From Anaerolineae bacterium (GTDB lineage: Bacteria > Chloroflexota > Anaerolineae > Aggregatilineales > Aggregatilineaceae), in NCBI GenBank assembly GCA_023382715.1, contig JAHDWP010000034.1:1-34388 (forward strand): a stretch of DNA of 34,388 nt, in the 5' to 3' direction. How positions within the stretch are numbered: position 1 is the stretch's first letter; every line of letters starts with the position of its first letter. Positions 13,173-18,846 of the stretch are shown here, piece after piece. The notes below the pieces were generated by a model. It did no database searches, had not been told where the DNA came from, and saw only the letters and a program-made list of their open reading frames with translations. The position numbers and the translations under genes were made by a program.

Positions 13173-14237
13173 CTACCTGCGCAGCGCCAGGGCGAGGCCC
13201 AGCAGCGCCAGGACTGCGCCTGCCGCAATAGCCACGTAGGGGATCGTGGTGCCGAAGAGCGCGATCCGGTCTTTGGCGTCCAGCGCGTCCTGCTTGGCAT
13301 CCTGGACGGACTGATCGGTGGCGCGGTAGTCCAGGTGGAAGACGGTCACTGGCAGAAGCCGCTCAACATCTTCCGGCGTGCGGCCCAGCGCGCTGATCTT
13401 CTCGATCAGTGAAGCCATCAGCTCATCCGAAAAGCCGGCGCTGCGAATCTCGACCTTATGCGTGTCAATCAGCACGCCGGTGACCGGCTCGACCCAGTAT
13501 TCAGCCTCGTAGCCATAGCCGTAGGTCAGCGGCACCGGATCGGGCCAGTTGGCCTGCTTGATCAGCGTGGGCAACGCCGCTGCGACCAGCGGACTGATGT
13601 CCAGCCCGCTGATCATCTGCCCAAGCTGCGCGTGCGAAAGCTCGGTGGGCAGGCCCATCGCGGCGACGGCGTCTGGGTGAATGGGCTGCGGCTCGGACGA
13701 GGATGTGTAGCGATACGTTTTGATCTTGGCGCGGTCGTGCTCTTCTTCGCCAGCGAAAGCCAGCGGCACGGTCGCCTGGTAATCGTCGCTCCAGCCGACA
13801 TAGTCTCTCTTCTCGGCGTCCAGCGGCCAGCCCAGGACCAGGCCGCTGCGCTCGGTCAGGCCCTCTTTGTCGGCCCACTTGGCGGGGTAGTCGTTGACGA
13901 ACTCCATCGTCTTGCGGTCAATGACGTGGTGTTTGACCATGTCCAGCAAGGGCGCGCCCTGGCTGGCGAGCGTTTGCTCTTCGAGCACCAGCGCCAGATC
14001 GCCATCGGTCGCTTCTGTCTTGAAGTGACGGGTCAGCTCGACGGGGATGTCGGTCAGGAATTGCAGCGCTTCGGCGTTGAGCAGGACGGGCATGGTGCCC
14101 TCGTAATTGCGCGTCGTATCTACGTCGGCGGGGAACTGCTTCATGCCGGGCACGATGACGAGCATCAGCACCAGGCCGGCAGCAATGATGACCAATCCAA
14201 TGAGGAATATCAGGAATCCAGTGGCTCGACGGTTCAT
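13173..14237 (-). CDS. DUF3068 (PorA-family-like) membrane protein
   Basis: The 354-residue protein has an N-terminal hydrophobic segment (about residues 6-28), a large extracytoplasmic domain, and a C-terminal hydrophobic segment (about 330-351) ending in LALRR. FPADVDTTRNYEGTMPV just after the first segment, DRKTMEFV, LGWPLDAEKRDYVGW and KTYRYTSS match the layout of DUF3068, a family best known from Actinobacteria and annotated there as PorA-like. The function here is unknown and a pore role should not be assumed. The start at 14235-14237 (MNRRATG) has GGGAGG about 8 nt upstream; a longer in-frame extension lacks homology. It is monocistronic with a strong terminator downstream. Confidence 0.78.
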   Translation of the reverse strand: MNRRATGFLIFLIGLVIIAAGLVLMLVIVPGMKQFPADVDTTRNYEGTMPVLLNAEALQFLTDIPVELTRHFKTEATDGDLALVLEEQTLASQGAPLLDMVKHHVIDRKTMEFVNDYPAKWADKEGLTERSGLVLGWPLDAEKRDYVGWSDDYQATVPLAFAGEEEHDRAKIKTYRYTSSSEPQPIHPDAVAAMGLPTELSHAQLGQMISGLDISPLVAAALPTLIKQANWPDPVPLTYGYGYEAEYWVEPVTGVLIDTHKVEIRSAGFSDELMASLIEKISALGRTPEDVERLLPVTVFHLDYRATDQSVQDAKQDALDAKDRIALFGTTIPYVAIAAGAVLALLGLALALRR

Positions 14238-14610
14238 AGGTGTTCCTCCCTGTGCAGACCTGGCTGAGACGCGGACATTAAAGGTAACTATACCGTCCCT
14301 GCCAGCAACGGAAAAAAACTGCTCCAATAGGGGGTGACCGAAGTCCCCGTGCTGCCTTCGGCGGGCGCGCGCGGAATCTGTCAGGGTGGGGCCGAGGGTG
14401 AGGTCAATGCCCGGCGTCAAGCGAGGTGCAGACAACCTGCGTGTACTCTTCTTTCGCCCCTCGACACCTCGGCACGCCGGCCTATACAACATGGCGGAAT
14501 GTGGTACAATGCCCTGCGGGCTGCCCAGCCGGGCAGCCCTTTCTCTGACAGAGACTGCGCGCCCGCCGGCGGGCTGCGGCGCGGAATATAGCGAAGGACG
14601 GCGAACGATC
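14238..14610. other. Intergenic region between divergent DUF3068 and cysC genes
   Basis: No gene is visible in these 373 bp. A TATAGT box on the minus strand (14287-14292) may serve the DUF3068 gene. GCCGAGGGTGAGGTCAA (14391-14407) is a fragment of the family 2 repeat. TACAAT at 14505-14510 (plus strand) is a candidate -10 for cysC, followed by the hairpin at 14518-14539. Confidence 0.5.
14518..14542 (+). promoter_or_regulatory. Terminator-like hairpin in the cysC leader
   Basis: GGGCTGCCC (14518-14526) and GGGCAGCCC (14531-14539) form a perfect 9-bp stem with a 4-nt loop, followed by TTTCTCT. It lies about 70 nt before the cysC start and just downstream of a TACAAT box. A GC-rich palindrome (GCCCGCCGGCGGGC) follows near 14553. 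This could be an attenuator, but no known riboswitch aptamer was recognised. Confidence 0.5.
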
Positions 14611-15159
14611 ATGACCGATCAGCAAGGCTTCACGCTCTGGTTCACGGGGCTTTCCGGGGCGGGCAAGACGACAGTGGCCCTGGCTGTGGAGAAGGAACTG
14701 CGCGCGCGGGGGGTGAAGGTCGAGCGGCTGGACGGCGACACGGTGCGCAAGAGCCTGACGCGCGACCTGGGCTTCTCCAAAGAAGACCGCGACAAGAACA
14801 TCGAGCGCGTGACCTTCGTGGCCAAGCTGCTATCGCGCAACGGGGTGGCCGTGCTGGCCTCGTTCATCTCGCCCTACCGCGAGACGCGGGCGATGGTGCG
14901 CGCCGAGACAACCCATTTCATCGAGGTCTTCGTGCACGCGCCGCTCGAAGTCTGCGCGCAGCGCGACGTGAAGGGCATGTACGCCAAGGCGTTCGCCGGC
15001 GAAATCCCCGAATTCACCGGGGTCAGCGACCCGTATGAGGAGCCGCTCGACCCGGAGATCACGCTGCACACACACCAGGAGACGGTGGAAGAGAGCGCCG
15101 CCAAGTGCCTGGCCTACCTGGAGGAGCACGGTTACATCCCCGTCGCGGAGAGCGCCTGA
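14611..15159 (+). CDS. cysC: Adenylyl-sulfate (APS) kinase
   Basis: The 182-residue protein phosphorylates adenosine 5'-phosphosulfate to PAPS with ATP, a cytosolic step of sulfate activation. It has the Walker A loop GLSGAGKT (residues 13-20), LDGDTVR (40-46), the FISPYRETR motif that binds APS, and DVKGMYAKAFAGEIPEFTGV in the lid region. Length is typical for a stand-alone CysC (about 180-210). The ATG at 14611 gives the normal family start; AAGGA lies about 12 nt upstream. No ATP sulfurylase or PAPS reductase is adjacent, so PAPS may feed sulfotransfer or assimilation genes elsewhere. A terminator-like hairpin lies in its leader and a strong terminator follows. Confidence 0.94.
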   Translation: MTDQQGFTLWFTGLSGAGKTTVALAVEKELRARGVKVERLDGDTVRKSLTRDLGFSKEDRDKNIERVTFVAKLLSRNGVAVLASFISPYRETRAMVRAETTHFIEVFVHAPLEVCAQRDVKGMYAKAFAGEIPEFTGVSDPYEEPLDPEITLHTHQETVEESAAKCLAYLEEHGYIPVAESA

Positions 15160-15196: not shown

Positions 15197-15220
15197 AGCC
15201 CCCTGCACAGGGGGCTTTTT
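15197..15220 (+). terminator. Intrinsic terminator of cysC
   Basis: AGCCCCCTG (15197-15205) pairs with CAGGGGGCT (15208-15216), followed by TTTTT through 15220. It is a strong plus-strand terminator and also lies just beyond the convergent cyclase gene ending at 15235. Confidence 0.9.
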
Positions 15221-15234
15221 GCTGCGGGCGCCAG

Positions 15235-16986
15235 TCAGGGATGACGGCGCTGGATGCCGGTCACGCGGTATATCTCGCTATAGACCGGGGCGGCGCTGGT
15301 CTTGCGCGGGGCTAGCGCCTCGACGGTGACCACCTCGGCGACGAGGCGATACGTATGCGGGCTGAGGAGAATCTCGCCGGATAGCGCGTTCTCCTGCAGA
15401 TATTTGGCGTGATTGAACGGCGCGCCGATGGCTGTGAACTCCTTGCGGCTGGGGCTGCCGACGTTGCCGAGCACAGCCAGACCCGTGTCCACGCCGATGC
15501 CGTAGAACAGGCGTTGTTCCGGCGGCAGGATTTCGTGCAGGGCGCGCACGTCGTAGGCCATGGACAGCGCGGCGCGCACGGCGCGCACGGCATGATCTGG
15601 CTGCGGGTTCAACTGCGTGTTGAACAGCCCCACCACAGCGTCGCCCAGGTACTTGTCAATGATGCCGTCGTGCAGTTGGATGGCGTCCGTGCACACGGTC
15701 AGATACTGGCTGATGATCGTCATCAGGCGTTCGGGATCAAGCTGCTCGCTGAAAGCGGTGAAGCCGCGCACGTCGGCGAAGATGACCGAGATCTCGCGCT
15801 CGTCGCCGCTCAGCCCCAGCCGGTCAATGCTCTGGATGTTGCGCACCAGCGAGGGGGGCAGGTAGGTGCGCACGACTTTGAGCGTGGCATCGCGCTGGCG
15901 AATCTCGGTCAGGTCGTCCACGACGATGGCCGTGCCGACCGTGAAGCCCTGCGCGTCCTTCAGCGGCGTCAGCTTGAGGCTCAGCGTCACCGCGCCGCGC
16001 CCCGGCAAGACCGGCTCGATCTCGAAGGCTTGCTGCCGGTTCTCCAACTGGACGGTCTGGGCCGCCTGCCTGAAGCCGGTTGAGAGGTCGGGCAGCACCG
16101 ACTCGACGGGCTGGCCCAATGCACGCTCGGCGGGCACGCCCAGAATCTGCTCGGCGGCGCGGTTGAAGATGACAATCTGGCTGTGCCGGTCGGTGGTGAT
16201 CACGCCGCTGGCGATAGAGGTCAGCACATTGTCGAGAAGCTGCTTAAGCTCGGTGATCTCGGCCAGGGCGCGCCGCGCGCGGGCGAAAAGACGCGCGTTC
16301 TCGATCGCGATGGCGGCCTGGTTGGCGAAGGCGACCAGCAGCGCCACCTCGCGCTCGCCAAACAGGTCGGCCACCTGCCGGTTGTCGGCGTAGAGCACGC
16401 CGGTCACCGTCCCCTTATGGATCAGCGGGACGCAGATGACTGAGCGCGGGCCGTGCGCCATGATGCTGCGCTGGATGCCATAGCGCGGGTCGAGCAGCGC
16501 ATCGCCGGCGAGCACCGGCTGGCCGGTCTCGGCGGCCTGGCGCATCACCGTCTCGCTGACGGCGAAGCGGCTGGCGTCCAGCGGCTGGCGGTGCAGATCG
16601 CGCCCGATGCGGAACTCGAGCTGGTCTGTGTCGGACGAGCGCAGCACAATGTAGGCGCGCTCGGCGCCGATCATGGCGATGGCCGTGTCCACCACCTCGG
16701 CCAGCACCGCTTCCGGCTCCAGCGAGGAGCCGAGCAGCCCGGTCGTCTTGGCCAGGGCGCGCAGTTGGTCCAGCTCCGTGTTTTCCTCAACCGACTGGTG
16801 CATCAACCCGTGCAACTGGGCGCGCACCTCCAGCAGGCTCTGCAGCGTGCCCGGCGGCGTGGTCATGCCGCGCTGGCGCAGGGAGTCCTGCTCGGTGCTC
16901 AGCATAGCGGCAAGCTCGCCTATCTGCTGACGGAGGCGTCCGATCTTGGCCTGGGCTTCGTGGTTGATGTTCGCCGTTTCGAGCAT
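15235..16986 (-). CDS. GAF-PAS-class III nucleotidyl cyclase, metal-binding (C1-like) partner
   Basis: This 583-residue soluble protein has a coiled N terminus, a GAF domain (about 90-245), a PAS domain (about 250-370), a YLPP linker (375-378) and a class III cyclase domain (about 398-555). Visible catalytic positions are Asp405 (FADVRGFT) and Asp449 (KYLGDAVVG) for the two metals, and Lys445 and Thr518 (EFTAIG) for the base. Asn525 is present, but the arginine expected four residues later is Tyr529 (FNHAKYLQ), and IGDAVN reads IGAPFN. A homodimer would therefore lack the transition-state arginine. The upstream gene, 31 bp away, encodes the complementary protein. Threonine at the base-specifying position is more typical of adenylyl than guanylyl cyclases; the product is inferred to be cAMP. 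GAF and PAS domains imply control by a small ligand, redox or similar input. Confidence 0.9.
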   Translation of the reverse strand: MLETANINHEAQAKIGRLRQQIGELAAMLSTEQDSLRQRGMTTPPGTLQSLLEVRAQLHGLMHQSVEENTELDQLRALAKTTGLLGSSLEPEAVLAEVVDTAIAMIGAERAYIVLRSSDTDQLEFRIGRDLHRQPLDASRFAVSETVMRQAAETGQPVLAGDALLDPRYGIQRSIMAHGPRSVICVPLIHKGTVTGVLYADNRQVADLFGEREVALLVAFANQAAIAIENARLFARARRALAEITELKQLLDNVLTSIASGVITTDRHSQIVIFNRAAEQILGVPAERALGQPVESVLPDLSTGFRQAAQTVQLENRQQAFEIEPVLPGRGAVTLSLKLTPLKDAQGFTVGTAIVVDDLTEIRQRDATLKVVRTYLPPSLVRNIQSIDRLGLSGDEREISVIFADVRGFTAFSEQLDPERLMTIISQYLTVCTDAIQLHDGIIDKYLGDAVVGLFNTQLNPQPDHAVRAVRAALSMAYDVRALHEILPPEQRLFYGIGVDTGLAVLGNVGSPSRKEFTAIGAPFNHAKYLQENALSGEILLSPHTYRLVAEVVTVEALAPRKTSAAPVYSEIYRVTGIQRRHP

Positions 16987-17017
16987 CGTGGCTGTGTATC
17001 CCTGGCGCGATGGCCGA

Positions 17018-18775
17018 TCAAACGTGCTCGCGCTGTATCTCGTAGATGGCGGTGGCCCGGCTGCGGCCCCTCACCTGTGCGCTGCCCCGCGCGATGACCA
17101 GCAGGCCGTTGGCCGGGTCCGCCAGTTGATCGGCGCAGGCCTGGTAGCAATCTTCGCTGATGATGATCTGGCCGGGCGCGGCATGTTCTTGCAGGCGCTT
17201 GGCCAGGTTCACCGTGTCGCCGAGGGCGGTGAAATCGCGGCGCGAAGGACTGCCTACGTTGCCCACCGTCGCTACGCCGGTGTGCACGCCAATGCGAAAG
17301 CAAGGGACCGGCTCTTCGCCGAGAGTGAGGGCCAGGGCCAGGAAGTCGTCGGCGATCTTCAGGGCGGCGAGGACGGCCTGCCAGGCGTGGTCGGGGGCCG
17401 GGTTGAGCTGCGTATTGAACAGGCCCATGATCTCGCTGCCCATGAACTTGTCAATGACGCCGTTCCGGGCGTGGATCGCCTCGGCGCCGACGGTCAGGTA
17501 AAGGTTGAGCCGCTCCATCAGCTCCTGGGCGCGCAATGCTTCCGGGAAAGACGACAGCGGGCGCGACTCGACGAAGAGGATGGTGGTCTCGCGCCGTTCG
17601 CCGCCCAGCCCCAGCCCGTCGAGGCTCTGGATGTTGTCCAGCACCGCCGGAGGGAGGTAGCGGCGCACCGCTTCGAGCGTGGCTTCGCGCCGCCTGATCT
17701 CGGTGAGGTCGTCCACGACGATGGCCGCGCCCTCGATGGCCTGCTGGTTGACCAGCGGGGACAGCTTGAAGGTCAGGCTCACCTCGCCCCGTTCTGGCAG
17801 CACCGGCGCGATCTCGATCCAGTCCTGCGCTCCGCTGGTGATCACGTCCGCCAGCGAATCGGCCAGATGCTCGTAAATGGGCGGCAGCGCCTGGGCGAGC
17901 GCGCGGCCCACCACGCCCTGGCTGGCGACGGTGAGGATGCGCTCTGCCGCATGGTTGCAGGTGGTGACGACGGTCGCCGTGTCGGTCGTGAGCACACCGC
18001 TGGCGATGGAGGCGAAGACGTTGTCCATTAGCTCGGTCATGGCGGTGACTTCGCTGAGGGCGGCCTGCACGCGGGCGAAGAGCCGGGCGTTTTCGATGGC
18101 GATGGCGGCCTGGTTGGCGAAGACAGACAGCAGCGACAGCTCCTTTTCGCCGAAAACGCCATCCTTGACGCGGTTATCCACATAGACTACCCCGGTCAGG
18201 CGATCCCGCAGGACCAGCGGCACACAGAGGATCGAGCGCAGAGCGTGGATGACCACGCTCTCCTGCGTGCTGAAGGCGGGGTCGGACAGGGCGTTGGTGG
18301 TCAGCACAGGGCGGCCCGTCTCGGCTACCTGGCCGACGACTGTGCGGCTGACGATGAACTCGCTCCGCTCCAGCGTCTCGCGGTCGAGGTTGCGGGCGAT
18401 GCGGAACTCCAGGTCGCTGGTCTGCTCGTCGCGCAGTACGATGTAGCCGCGCTCGGCCCCGGTCAGGGCGATGACCGTATCCATCACTTCGTTGAGCACC
18501 TGGTGGATATCCAGCGAGGAGTTGATCAGGGCGGTGGTGTGGGCCAGGGCGCGCAGTTGTTCCAGCTCGACGGCGGCGGCGCTCAGAAACGCGGAGACGG
18601 CGCGCAGGTCCGTGGTGACCTGCGCCAAGCCGCCCAGCAGATCGGGCGGGAGGCCCAGCGCGCGCTGGCGCAGCAGGCTATGCTGGGCGTGCAGCGCGTC
18701 GGTGACATCCTGGACGACCTGGCTCAACTGGGCGAGTCGTGCGGCAACCGGCAGGTTCTTCCCGGAGCCAACCAT
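17018..18775 (-). CDS. GAF-PAS-class III cyclase-like protein, arginine-donating (C2-like) partner
   Basis: The 585-residue protein has the same order of domains as its downstream paralogue: coiled N terminus, GAF (about 90-245), PAS (about 250-370), YLPP linker, cyclase domain (about 396-555). Both metal positions are lost: FADVR reads FVESR (Glu403) and GDAV reads GSEIM (Ser447). The base and transition-state residues are intact: Lys443, Thr516 (DFTALG), Asn523 and Arg527 (VNLAKRLQ). On its own it should be inactive. The spacings between equivalent residues (44 and 120) are identical in the two proteins, so the alignment is secure. It is the first gene of the pair, with a TATAAT promoter 37 nt or so upstream. 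Alone it could be misread as a degenerate cyclase; together with the neighbour it completes one active site. Confidence 0.9.
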   Translation of the reverse strand: MVGSGKNLPVAARLAQLSQVVQDVTDALHAQHSLLRQRALGLPPDLLGGLAQVTTDLRAVSAFLSAAAVELEQLRALAHTTALINSSLDIHQVLNEVMDTVIALTGAERGYIVLRDEQTSDLEFRIARNLDRETLERSEFIVSRTVVGQVAETGRPVLTTNALSDPAFSTQESVVIHALRSILCVPLVLRDRLTGVVYVDNRVKDGVFGEKELSLLSVFANQAAIAIENARLFARVQAALSEVTAMTELMDNVFASIASGVLTTDTATVVTTCNHAAERILTVASQGVVGRALAQALPPIYEHLADSLADVITSGAQDWIEIAPVLPERGEVSLTFKLSPLVNQQAIEGAAIVVDDLTEIRRREATLEAVRRYLPPAVLDNIQSLDGLGLGGERRETTILFVESRPLSSFPEALRAQELMERLNLYLTVGAEAIHARNGVIDKFMGSEIMGLFNTQLNPAPDHAWQAVLAALKIADDFLALALTLGEEPVPCFRIGVHTGVATVGNVGSPSRRDFTALGDTVNLAKRLQEHAAPGQIIISEDCYQACADQLADPANGLLVIARGSAQVRGRSRATAIYEIQREHV

Positions 18776-18818: not shown

Positions 18819-18846
18819 ATTATACCCGTGCGCGGAAGGTCAGCAA
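18819..18846 (-). promoter_or_regulatory. Promoter of the tandem cyclase operon
   Basis: On the minus strand a perfect TATAAT (18819-18824) lies 16 bp after TTGCTG (18841-18846, three of six matches to the -35 consensus). The leader would be about 37 nt. This single promoter would serve both cyclase genes. Confidence 0.55.

What the first reader, a model, noticed from the sequence alone, without database searches (positions are those of the whole stretch)
15235..18775. Tandem class III cyclases with complementary catalytic residues: a predicted obligate heterodimeric (C1/C2-like) bacterial cyclase
Seen directly: the two adjacent co-oriented genes, 31 bp apart, encode GAF-PAS-cyclase proteins whose cyclase domains align without gaps over the key positions (spacings 44 and 120 residues in both). 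The downstream protein keeps metal ligands Asp405 and Asp449 but has Tyr529 in place of the transition-state Arg. The upstream protein has Glu403 and Ser447 at the metal positions but keeps Lys443, Thr516, Asn523 and Arg527. Known: class III cyclases work as dimers in which one subunit gives the two Asp and the other gives Lys, Asp/Thr, Asn and Arg; in animal membrane cyclases C1 and C2 split these roles. Inference: only the heterodimer has a complete site, one per dimer, and the second site is degenerate and could bind a regulator as in mammalian AC. Two different GAF-PAS inputs would then be integrated by forced pairing. I do not recall this described as a bacterial sensor pair, though I cannot search.
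Basis: partly seen in the sequence, partly recalled or inferred. Interest (0 to 1): 0.87.

Follow-up and report, generated by a model that had tools for sequence, protein, structure and literature searches.

The report
Bacterial cyclase built from two half-enzymes
Two neighbouring genes in a Chloroflexota bacterium encode sister sensor proteins that have each lost the opposite half of a cAMP-making active site, so that probably only the mixed pair can work, as in animal adenylyl cyclases but evolved separately.

Summary
U (window 17018-18775, minus strand) and D (15235-16986) are GAF-PAS-class III cyclases 31 bp apart. U keeps Lys443, Thr516, Asn523, Arg527 but lacks the second metal Asp. D keeps both metal Asp but lacks the Arg. 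Of 88 non-redundant tandem pairs, 85 were readable and 85 of 85 show this split. All 9 single-gene loci of one family of the order, 27 of 27 fetched single homologues from other orders and 17 of 17 other cyclases examined are complete. A tree without the catalytic columns gives one U+D clade (100/100) apart from the singles. Best reading: one duplication of a homodimeric cyclase, then complementary loss, giving an obligate heterodimer with one active and one degenerate site, working like mammalian C1/C2 or sGC alpha/beta. Passages that I read describe bacterial class III cyclases as homodimers. 'Two different inputs' is not supported: no paralogue-specific site falls in GAF or PAS. No activity or complex was measured or modelled.

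The parts
17018..18775 (-). U, upstream gene, 585 aa: N-terminal helix, GAF, PAS, class III cyclase; C2-like half (keeps Lys443, Thr516, Asn523, Arg527, lacks the second metal Asp)
15235..16986 (-). D, downstream gene, 583 aa: same architecture; C1-like half (keeps Asp405 and Asp449, Tyr529 in place of Arg)
16987..17017 (-). 31-bp gap between U and D; in 60 related pairs with script-chosen starts the gap has median 2.5 bp, range -8 to 131, and 25 of 60 overlap
18092..18514 (-). GAF domain of U (residues 88-228)
17693..18013 (-). PAS domain of U (residues 255-361)
17054..17587 (-). cyclase domain of U (residues 397-574)
   Evidence: AF2 blocks mostly about 90 pLDDT, two near 70
17567..17569 (-). 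U Glu403 codon, first metal position (Asp in 41 of 85 U)
17435..17437 (-). U Ser447 codon, second metal position (Asp in 0 of 85 U)
17195..17197 (-). U Arg527 codon, transition-state Arg (85 of 85)
16300..16722 (-). GAF domain of D (residues 89-229)
15898..16221 (-). PAS domain of D (residues 256-363)
15337..15798 (-). cyclase domain of D (residues 397-550)
   Evidence: AF2 blocks mostly about 90 pLDDT
15772..15774 (-). D Asp405 codon, first metal Asp (85 of 85)
15640..15642 (-). D Asp449 codon, second metal Asp (85 of 85)
15400..15402 (-). D Tyr529 codon at the Arg position (Arg in 0 of 85 D)
18819..18824 (-). TATAAT seen by eye, 43 bp before the U start and after the end of the topoisomerase gene; its upstream hexamer (TTGCTG) is weak and the scan did not list it
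   Evidence: read by eye; not among the hits
15200..15214 (+). hairpin with T-run on the + strand between the convergent D and APS-kinase-like genes
   Evidence: 1 found, 1.4 expected by chance

Best explanation
U and D form an obligate heterodimer through their cyclase domains (and probably their helices, GAF and PAS domains). One composite active site is made of D's two Mg-binding Asp (405, 449) and U's Lys443/Thr516 (adenine), Asn523 and Arg527 (ribose, transition state). It makes cAMP from ATP. The mirror-image site, made of U's spoiled metal side and D's spoiled Arg side, cannot catalyse. The pair arose by one tandem duplication of a self-sufficient homodimeric GAF-PAS cyclase, followed by complementary loss before most families of the order separated. 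GAF-PAS input drives the relative movement of the two catalytic halves. Shown: residue split, orthology, conservation, linkage, purifying selection, fold. Inferred: complex formation, activity, product, the role of GAF-PAS, and lack of activity of each homodimer.
For: 85 of 85 non-redundant readable pairs: U keeps K, T/S, N, R and never the second Asp; D keeps both Asp and never the Arg. Two further pairs fetched later agree (L248, L249). Complete residues in 9 of 9 family-f3 single-gene loci, 27 of 27 fetched single homologues from other orders and 17 of 17 other cyclases examined. Tree without the six catalytic columns: U+D one clade 100/100 against the singles; U 100/100; D 64/86. 22 paralogue-specific sites, all from U376 on; residues kept by the singles are lost or relaxed in U on the metal side (for example D449, E414) and in D around the Arg side (N525, D522, the Arg of a C-terminal KGR). 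dN/dS 0.13 (U) and 0.19 (D), one comparison. Same strand 88 of 88, 25 of 60 pairs overlapping, while flanking genes matching the window's are found almost only within the window's own family. Cyclase fold in both models. Sequence searches of solved structures: D aligns with the first cyclase domain of soluble adenylyl cyclase and with sGC alpha-3, U with the second domain of soluble adenylyl cyclase and with sGC beta-1 (which domain gives the metals there is recalled). Five cNMP-binding proteins in the genome as possible readers.
Against: No direct evidence of a complex or of activity; no heterodimer model was made. D keeps Lys445 in 82 of 85 and Thr or Ser518 in 60 of 85, more than a purely dead second half would need. 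D's single-clade support is modest (64/86; one group in 68% of 200 bootstrap trees). The C1/C2-like matching is not uniform: D also matches an algal sGC beta chain (3et6), and both U and D match the first-domain region of membrane cyclases AC8 or AC9 (domain by residue range, recalled). Single homologues are complete, but their homodimeric activity is itself unmeasured. The own genome has another complete cyclase (L001), so the pair is not the only possible cAMP source.
Confidence: 0.85

Rival explanations
1. D is an active homodimer that has replaced the transition-state Arg by another residue or mechanism, and U is a regulatory pseudo-cyclase.
For: D keeps both metal Asp in 85 of 85, and Lys in 82 of 85; the Arg position holds Lys in 12 of 85 D. 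Cyclases atypical at the Asn position are reported (passage of PMC4886424 on Rv1900c).
Against: The replacing residue is not fixed (Leu 41, Tyr 13, Lys 12, Ile 6, Phe 5, Trp 3, Gln 2, Ser 2, Thr 1 of 85) and Asn is lost in 70 of 85. U keeps Lys, Asn and Arg in 85 of 85, pointless for a mere regulator.
Confidence: 0.07
2. Both proteins are catalytically dead and the cyclase fold is kept only as a dimerisation or ligand-binding module.
For: Each chain alone is incomplete; I found no measurement of activity.
Against: The composite site is complete in 85 of 85 readable pairs, and dN/dS is well below 1 in both cyclase domains (0.11 and 0.17). Losses are complementary, not random.
Confidence: 0.05
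3. The pair is a heterodimer but makes cGMP or another cyclic nucleotide, or both.
For: Product was not tested; the Thr at the purine position is Ser in 6 of 85 U.
Against: Lys plus Thr is an adenine-type pair in class III cyclases (recalled); guanylyl cyclases have Glu with Cys (passage of PMC4886424).
Confidence: 0.06
4. The single gene of family f3 is not the old state: f3 lost one copy and the other regained its residues or was replaced, so the history is not duplication then loss.
For: The branching of f3 relative to the outgroup singles is weakly resolved, and I made no species tree.
Against: f3 singles fall outside U+D, which is 100/100 in the tree, and share the complete residues with 27 fetched outgroup singles.
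Confidence: 0.05

Closest known systems
Mammalian membrane adenylyl cyclase C1/C2
   Same: One domain gives the metal Asp, the other the substrate and transition-state residues; one active and one pseudo-site (passages of PMC4174876).
   Different: There the two domains are in one membrane chain in the order C1-C2; here two GAF-PAS proteins from two genes, C2-like gene first, from a separate duplication in bacteria.
Soluble guanylyl cyclase alpha/beta
   Same: Two genes, two paralogous sensor-cyclase chains; homodimers of the isolated catalytic domains inactive, heterodimer active (passages of PMC3901396). D matches alpha-3 and U matches beta-1 in sequence searches, though D also matches one algal beta chain.
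   Different: sGC has H-NOX and PAS domains and uses GTP; here GAF and PAS and predicted ATP.
Bacterial homodimeric class III cyclases (CyaB of P. aeruginosa, CyaC of Spirulina, Cya2)
   Same: Same fold; these catalytic domains are the closest natural solved structures.
   Different: Each chain has all residues and the dimer has two sites (passage of PMC4174876); here neither chain is complete.
Chytrid fungus rhodopsin-cyclases RGC/NeoR
   Same: Obligate heterodimer of two sensor-cyclase paralogues (passages of PMC8815786).
   Different: There RGC1 and RGC2 keep all catalytic residues, so the obligation is thought to lie elsewhere (passage of PMC8815786).
Single-gene cyclases of other orders of the class and of family f3
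   Same: Similar length, aligning with U and D over the stretch used for the tree; closest homologues seen outside the pair.
   Different: Complete residue set in one chain; no second such cyclase in the longer stretches fetched (15 outgroup loci; six f3 loci).

Membership tests
Class III nucleotidyl cyclase | Guanylate_cyc (PF00211) domain | tested here: met
   50.8 (D) and 44.5 (U) bits, cut-off 21.9
Class III nucleotidyl cyclase | two metal Asp, Lys + Asp/Thr, Asn, Arg present in the dimer | tested here: met
   met only in trans: D gives both Asp, U the rest, 85 of 85 pairs
Bacterial homodimeric class III cyclase | one chain carries the complete residue set | tested here: not met
   U lacks the second Asp, D lacks Arg, in 85 of 85 pairs
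Class IIIb-type adenylyl cyclase | Thr instead of Asp at the purine-recognition position (recalled definition) | tested here: met
   Thr516 in window U; Thr 79 and Ser 6 of 85 U
Mammalian tmAC (C1/C2) | complementary split of catalytic residues between two cyclase domains | tested here: met
   against the description in passages of PMC4174876
Mammalian tmAC (C1/C2) | both cyclase domains in one membrane protein with two 6-TM cassettes | tested here: not met
   two separate genes with GAF and PAS domains
Soluble guanylyl cyclase | H-NOX domain | tested here: not met
   Pfam lists GAF and PAS, no H-NOX, at E 0.001
Heterodimeric cyclase | physical U-D complex and activity only of the mixture | not testable with these tools
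   needs protein work; only single chains were folded

The most novel reading that the evidence does not exclude
The degenerate second site has become a regulatory pocket. U has gained Glu448 next to the lost Asp and Arg494 in a later strand (each 59 of 64 U; of 36 singles 36 have Ala and 35 have Gly there), while D still offers Lys445 (82 of 85) from the other side. Either Arg494 seals the empty metal site by a salt bridge with Asp/Glu403, or it binds the phosphate of a regulator: a bacterial counterpart of the forskolin site, evolved independently.
Probability: 0.35. Interest if true: 0.85.

Novelty: new variant of a known kind. Interest (0 to 1): 0.76.

Why it matters
Passages that I read describe bacterial class III cyclases as homodimers with all residues in one chain (PMC4174876; PMC4886424) and speak of heterodimeric class III complexes in higher eukaryotes and chytrid fungi (PMC8815786). 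Here the C1/C2-type split appears to have evolved separately, in bacteria, with living relatives that still carry a complete single gene. That makes a long-standing question testable: how a homodimeric enzyme becomes an obligate heterodimer with a spare, non-catalytic site, and whether that spare site is then put to regulatory use. It may also give a two-gene cyclase whose halves could serve as a split-enzyme reporter.

Tried and rejected
Rejected: that the split is a quirk of this genome (85 of 85 pairs), and that degenerate cyclases are common in these bacteria (17 of 17 other cyclases examined are complete; those were the best matches in seven genomes plus the own one, not a census). Rejected: that lone U or D genes are frequent. 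In the order-wide search (154 genomes) 145 have a match, 129 exactly two, 15 one (9 of them family f3), one three (G028, a locus broken into several frames) and 9 none. Of the six other one-match genomes, G001, G039, G357, G379 and G428 lie at contig ends and G367 was not resolved. I did not check adjacency in all 129, only in the fetched loci.

Not supported: different sensing by the two GAF-PAS halves. No tandem pair outside the order was seen among the listed matches (298 genomes, 157 of the 176 with a match lying outside the order; the list was cut and at most 9 candidates a genome were scored). The promoter scan's single hit lies inside U. Intergenic distances rest on starts chosen by a script, nearest Met to the aligned start, and are approximate. 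The agreement of U and D distances between genomes (r 0.86, 0 of 1000 permutations as high) is expected from shared descent and is no proof of contact. Foldseek ranks of sGC chains (8hbf_A rank 4 for D, 8hbe_B rank 11 for U) rest on whole-model alignments with rmsd near 30 and TM about 0.3, and the subunit of each chain letter is assumed, so I give them no weight.

Rows dropped before counts. One search started from 124 two-gene loci, reduced to 88 by near-identity; 3 (L062, L069, L114) had unreadable positions. L059 (broken into frames), L052 and L090 (one genome, halves on two contig ends; L106 is the same as L052) and L089 (contig end) were not counted as pairs; L052, L089 and L090 fit the pattern. 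In the outgroup count, four genomes fetched twice were counted once; the 27 are those fetched, out of 157 out-of-order genomes with a match. One search left out L225-L227 and L239, which belong to pairs. Tree rows (27 pairs, 8 of 9 f3 singles, 13 of 27 outgroup singles) were picked by hand for spread.

Papers: passages of five were seen (PMC9433096, PMC8815786, PMC4174876, PMC3901396, PMC4886424). PMC2447327 was searched by terms, and the held text gave one passage, from the reference list. All others were seen as search listings only. No natural bacterial heterodimeric class III cyclase appeared in those listings; the library is open-licence PMC only. That engineered Rv1625c mutants complement each other (Guo et al. 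2001) is recalled, not read.
Full report
What is there. The window lies in contig C34 of a 3.88 Mb genome. The named relatives are Chloroflexota, nearly all MAGs, many labelled Anaerolineae. Two minus-strand genes, U (17018-18775, 585 aa) and D (15235-16986, 583 aa), are 31 bp apart. Both have a long N-terminal helix, GAF, PAS and a class III cyclase domain and are 46% identical. U: E403, K443, S447, T516, N523, R527. D: D405, K445, D449, T518, N525, Y529.

Conservation of the split. In 61 genomes of the order, and in the 79 best named loci from a scan of species genomes (485 relatives found, 80 kept), the pair recurs. I collected 124 two-gene loci, 88 of them non-redundant, 85 readable at all twelve positions. 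In 85 of 85, U keeps Lys, Thr or Ser, Asn and Arg and has no Asp at the second metal position (Asn 38, Thr 26, Ser 19, Gly 1, His 1), and D keeps both Asp and has no Arg (Leu 41, Tyr 13, Lys 12, Ile 6, Phe 5, Trp 3, Gln 2, Ser 2, Thr 1). U's first metal position is Asp in 41. D's Asn is kept in 15, D's Lys in 82 (Gln in 3). Both genes are on one strand in 88 of 88. Two more pairs (L248, L249) fit. A whole-order search finds exactly two matches in 129 of 154 genomes, one in 15, three in one and none in 9; adjacency was checked only in the fetched loci.

Natural controls. Family f3 of the same order has one gene instead of two in all 9 sampled genomes, and all 9 carry the complete set DKDTNR. 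In six of them (L050, L057, L068, L072, L076, L087) the contig runs on for more than 2 kb past the gene with no partner found; in the other three the contig ends too soon to say. Single homologues from other orders of the class, of similar length, are complete in 27 of 27 distinct genomes fetched, out of 157 out-of-order genomes with a match. Other cyclases, 16 from seven genomes of the order plus the third cyclase of the window's own genome, are complete in 17 of 17. So far as sampled, degeneracy belongs to the pair and goes with having a partner.

History. A maximum-likelihood tree of 75 proteins, with the six catalytic columns removed, puts all U and D in one clade against the singles (100/100), U in one clade (100/100) and D in one clade with modest support (64/86). 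U and D distances between genomes correlate (r 0.86), as expected from shared descent. The simplest history is one tandem duplication after f3 split off, then complementary loss before the other families radiated. Flanking genes resembling the window's are found almost only within the window's own family, yet the pair stays together, and 25 of 60 pairs have overlapping ends by script-chosen starts.

Where the paralogues differ. By fixed thresholds, 22 positions are conserved in one paralogue and not in the other, or fixed differently in both. All lie from U376 onward, in the last linker and the cyclase domain, and none in GAF or PAS. Compared with 36 singles, U has lost or relaxed residues near the metal side (D449, E414 and L493 in D numbering; F409 is still Phe in 26 of 64 U), and D those near the Arg side (N525, D522, the Arg of a C-terminal KGR, still Arg in 17 D). 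Two changes look like new functions in U: Glu448 (Ala in 36 of 36 singles) and Arg494 (Gly in 35 of 36 singles), each in 59 of 64 U. By position Arg494 seems to match Rv1625c Arg344, which is reported to form a salt bridge with that enzyme's metal Asp256 (passage of PMC4174876); this matching is mine, from recalled motifs, and was not tested by alignment. D396 is Glu in 62 of 65 D where 60 of 64 U and 32 of 36 singles have Arg, possibly an interface charge change. dN/dS against a 90% identical relative is 0.13 for U and 0.19 for D (one comparison).

Structure. AlphaFold models of the single chains have mean pLDDT 82.3 and 83.5 but pTM of only 0.43 and 0.45, so domain arrangement is not reliable; cyclase blocks are mostly about 90. 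Foldseek's nearest natural catalytic domains are CyaC, Cya2 and CyaB; the top hit 6fht is an artificial fusion. In sequence searches of solved structures D matches the first cyclase domain of soluble adenylyl cyclase (residues 42-207) and sGC alpha-3, and U the second domain of soluble adenylyl cyclase (residues 264-426) and sGC beta-1; against this, D also matches the algal sGC beta chain 3et6, and both match the first-domain region of AC8 (U also AC9) (domain roles recalled). A heterodimer was not modelled.

Mechanism. Known for mammalian cyclases: C1 gives the metal Asp, C2 the substrate and transition-state residues, leaving one active and one pseudo-site (passages of PMC4174876). Known for sGC: homodimers of the isolated catalytic domains are inactive and the mixture is active (passages of PMC3901396). 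By the same logic D plus U gives one complete site. Lys with Thr predicts ATP as substrate (recalled rule). The genome has five cNMP-binding proteins that could read cAMP. What GAF and PAS sense is unknown, and the two chains show no sign of sensing different things.

What is new. In the passages read, bacterial class III cyclases are described as homodimers (PMC4174876; PMC4886424) and heterodimeric ones are described in higher eukaryotes and chytrid fungi (PMC8815786). Searches listed no natural bacterial case; only open-licence PMC papers were searchable. I file this as a new variant of a known kind: the same working principle as C1/C2, in a new lineage with separate origin and different sensor domains. 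Biochemistry remains to be done.

Noticed in passing
U residues Glu448 and Arg494 (window codons 17432-17434 and 17294-17296): Derived, strongly conserved residues (59 of 64 U each) beside the lost metal site, absent in nearly all 36 singles: a sealed or repurposed second site.
   Followed up: partly
U Arg394 / D Glu396: Opposite charges fixed at the same alignment position, Arg in 32 of 36 singles; possible heterodimer-specific contact.
   Followed up: no
L079, L202, L203, L248 (genus g35 of family f2): D has Gln in place of the conserved Lys445 in 4 of 5 fetched pairs of this genus (L201 keeps Lys); the only pairs seen with this change.
   Followed up: no
L059 (genome G028): Both genes of the pair are broken into several frames, either assembly errors or a decaying pair; left as found.
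   Followed up: no
G046, G058, G345, G385, G386: Genomes of the order with neither the pair nor any cyclase match at E 1e-30: apparent absence of the whole system.
   Followed up: partly
window 13173-15159: APS-kinase-like gene on the + strand convergent with D, then a membrane protein gene on the minus strand; matches to these were found only in close relatives. Names are from reading the sequence, not from a family search.
   Followed up: no
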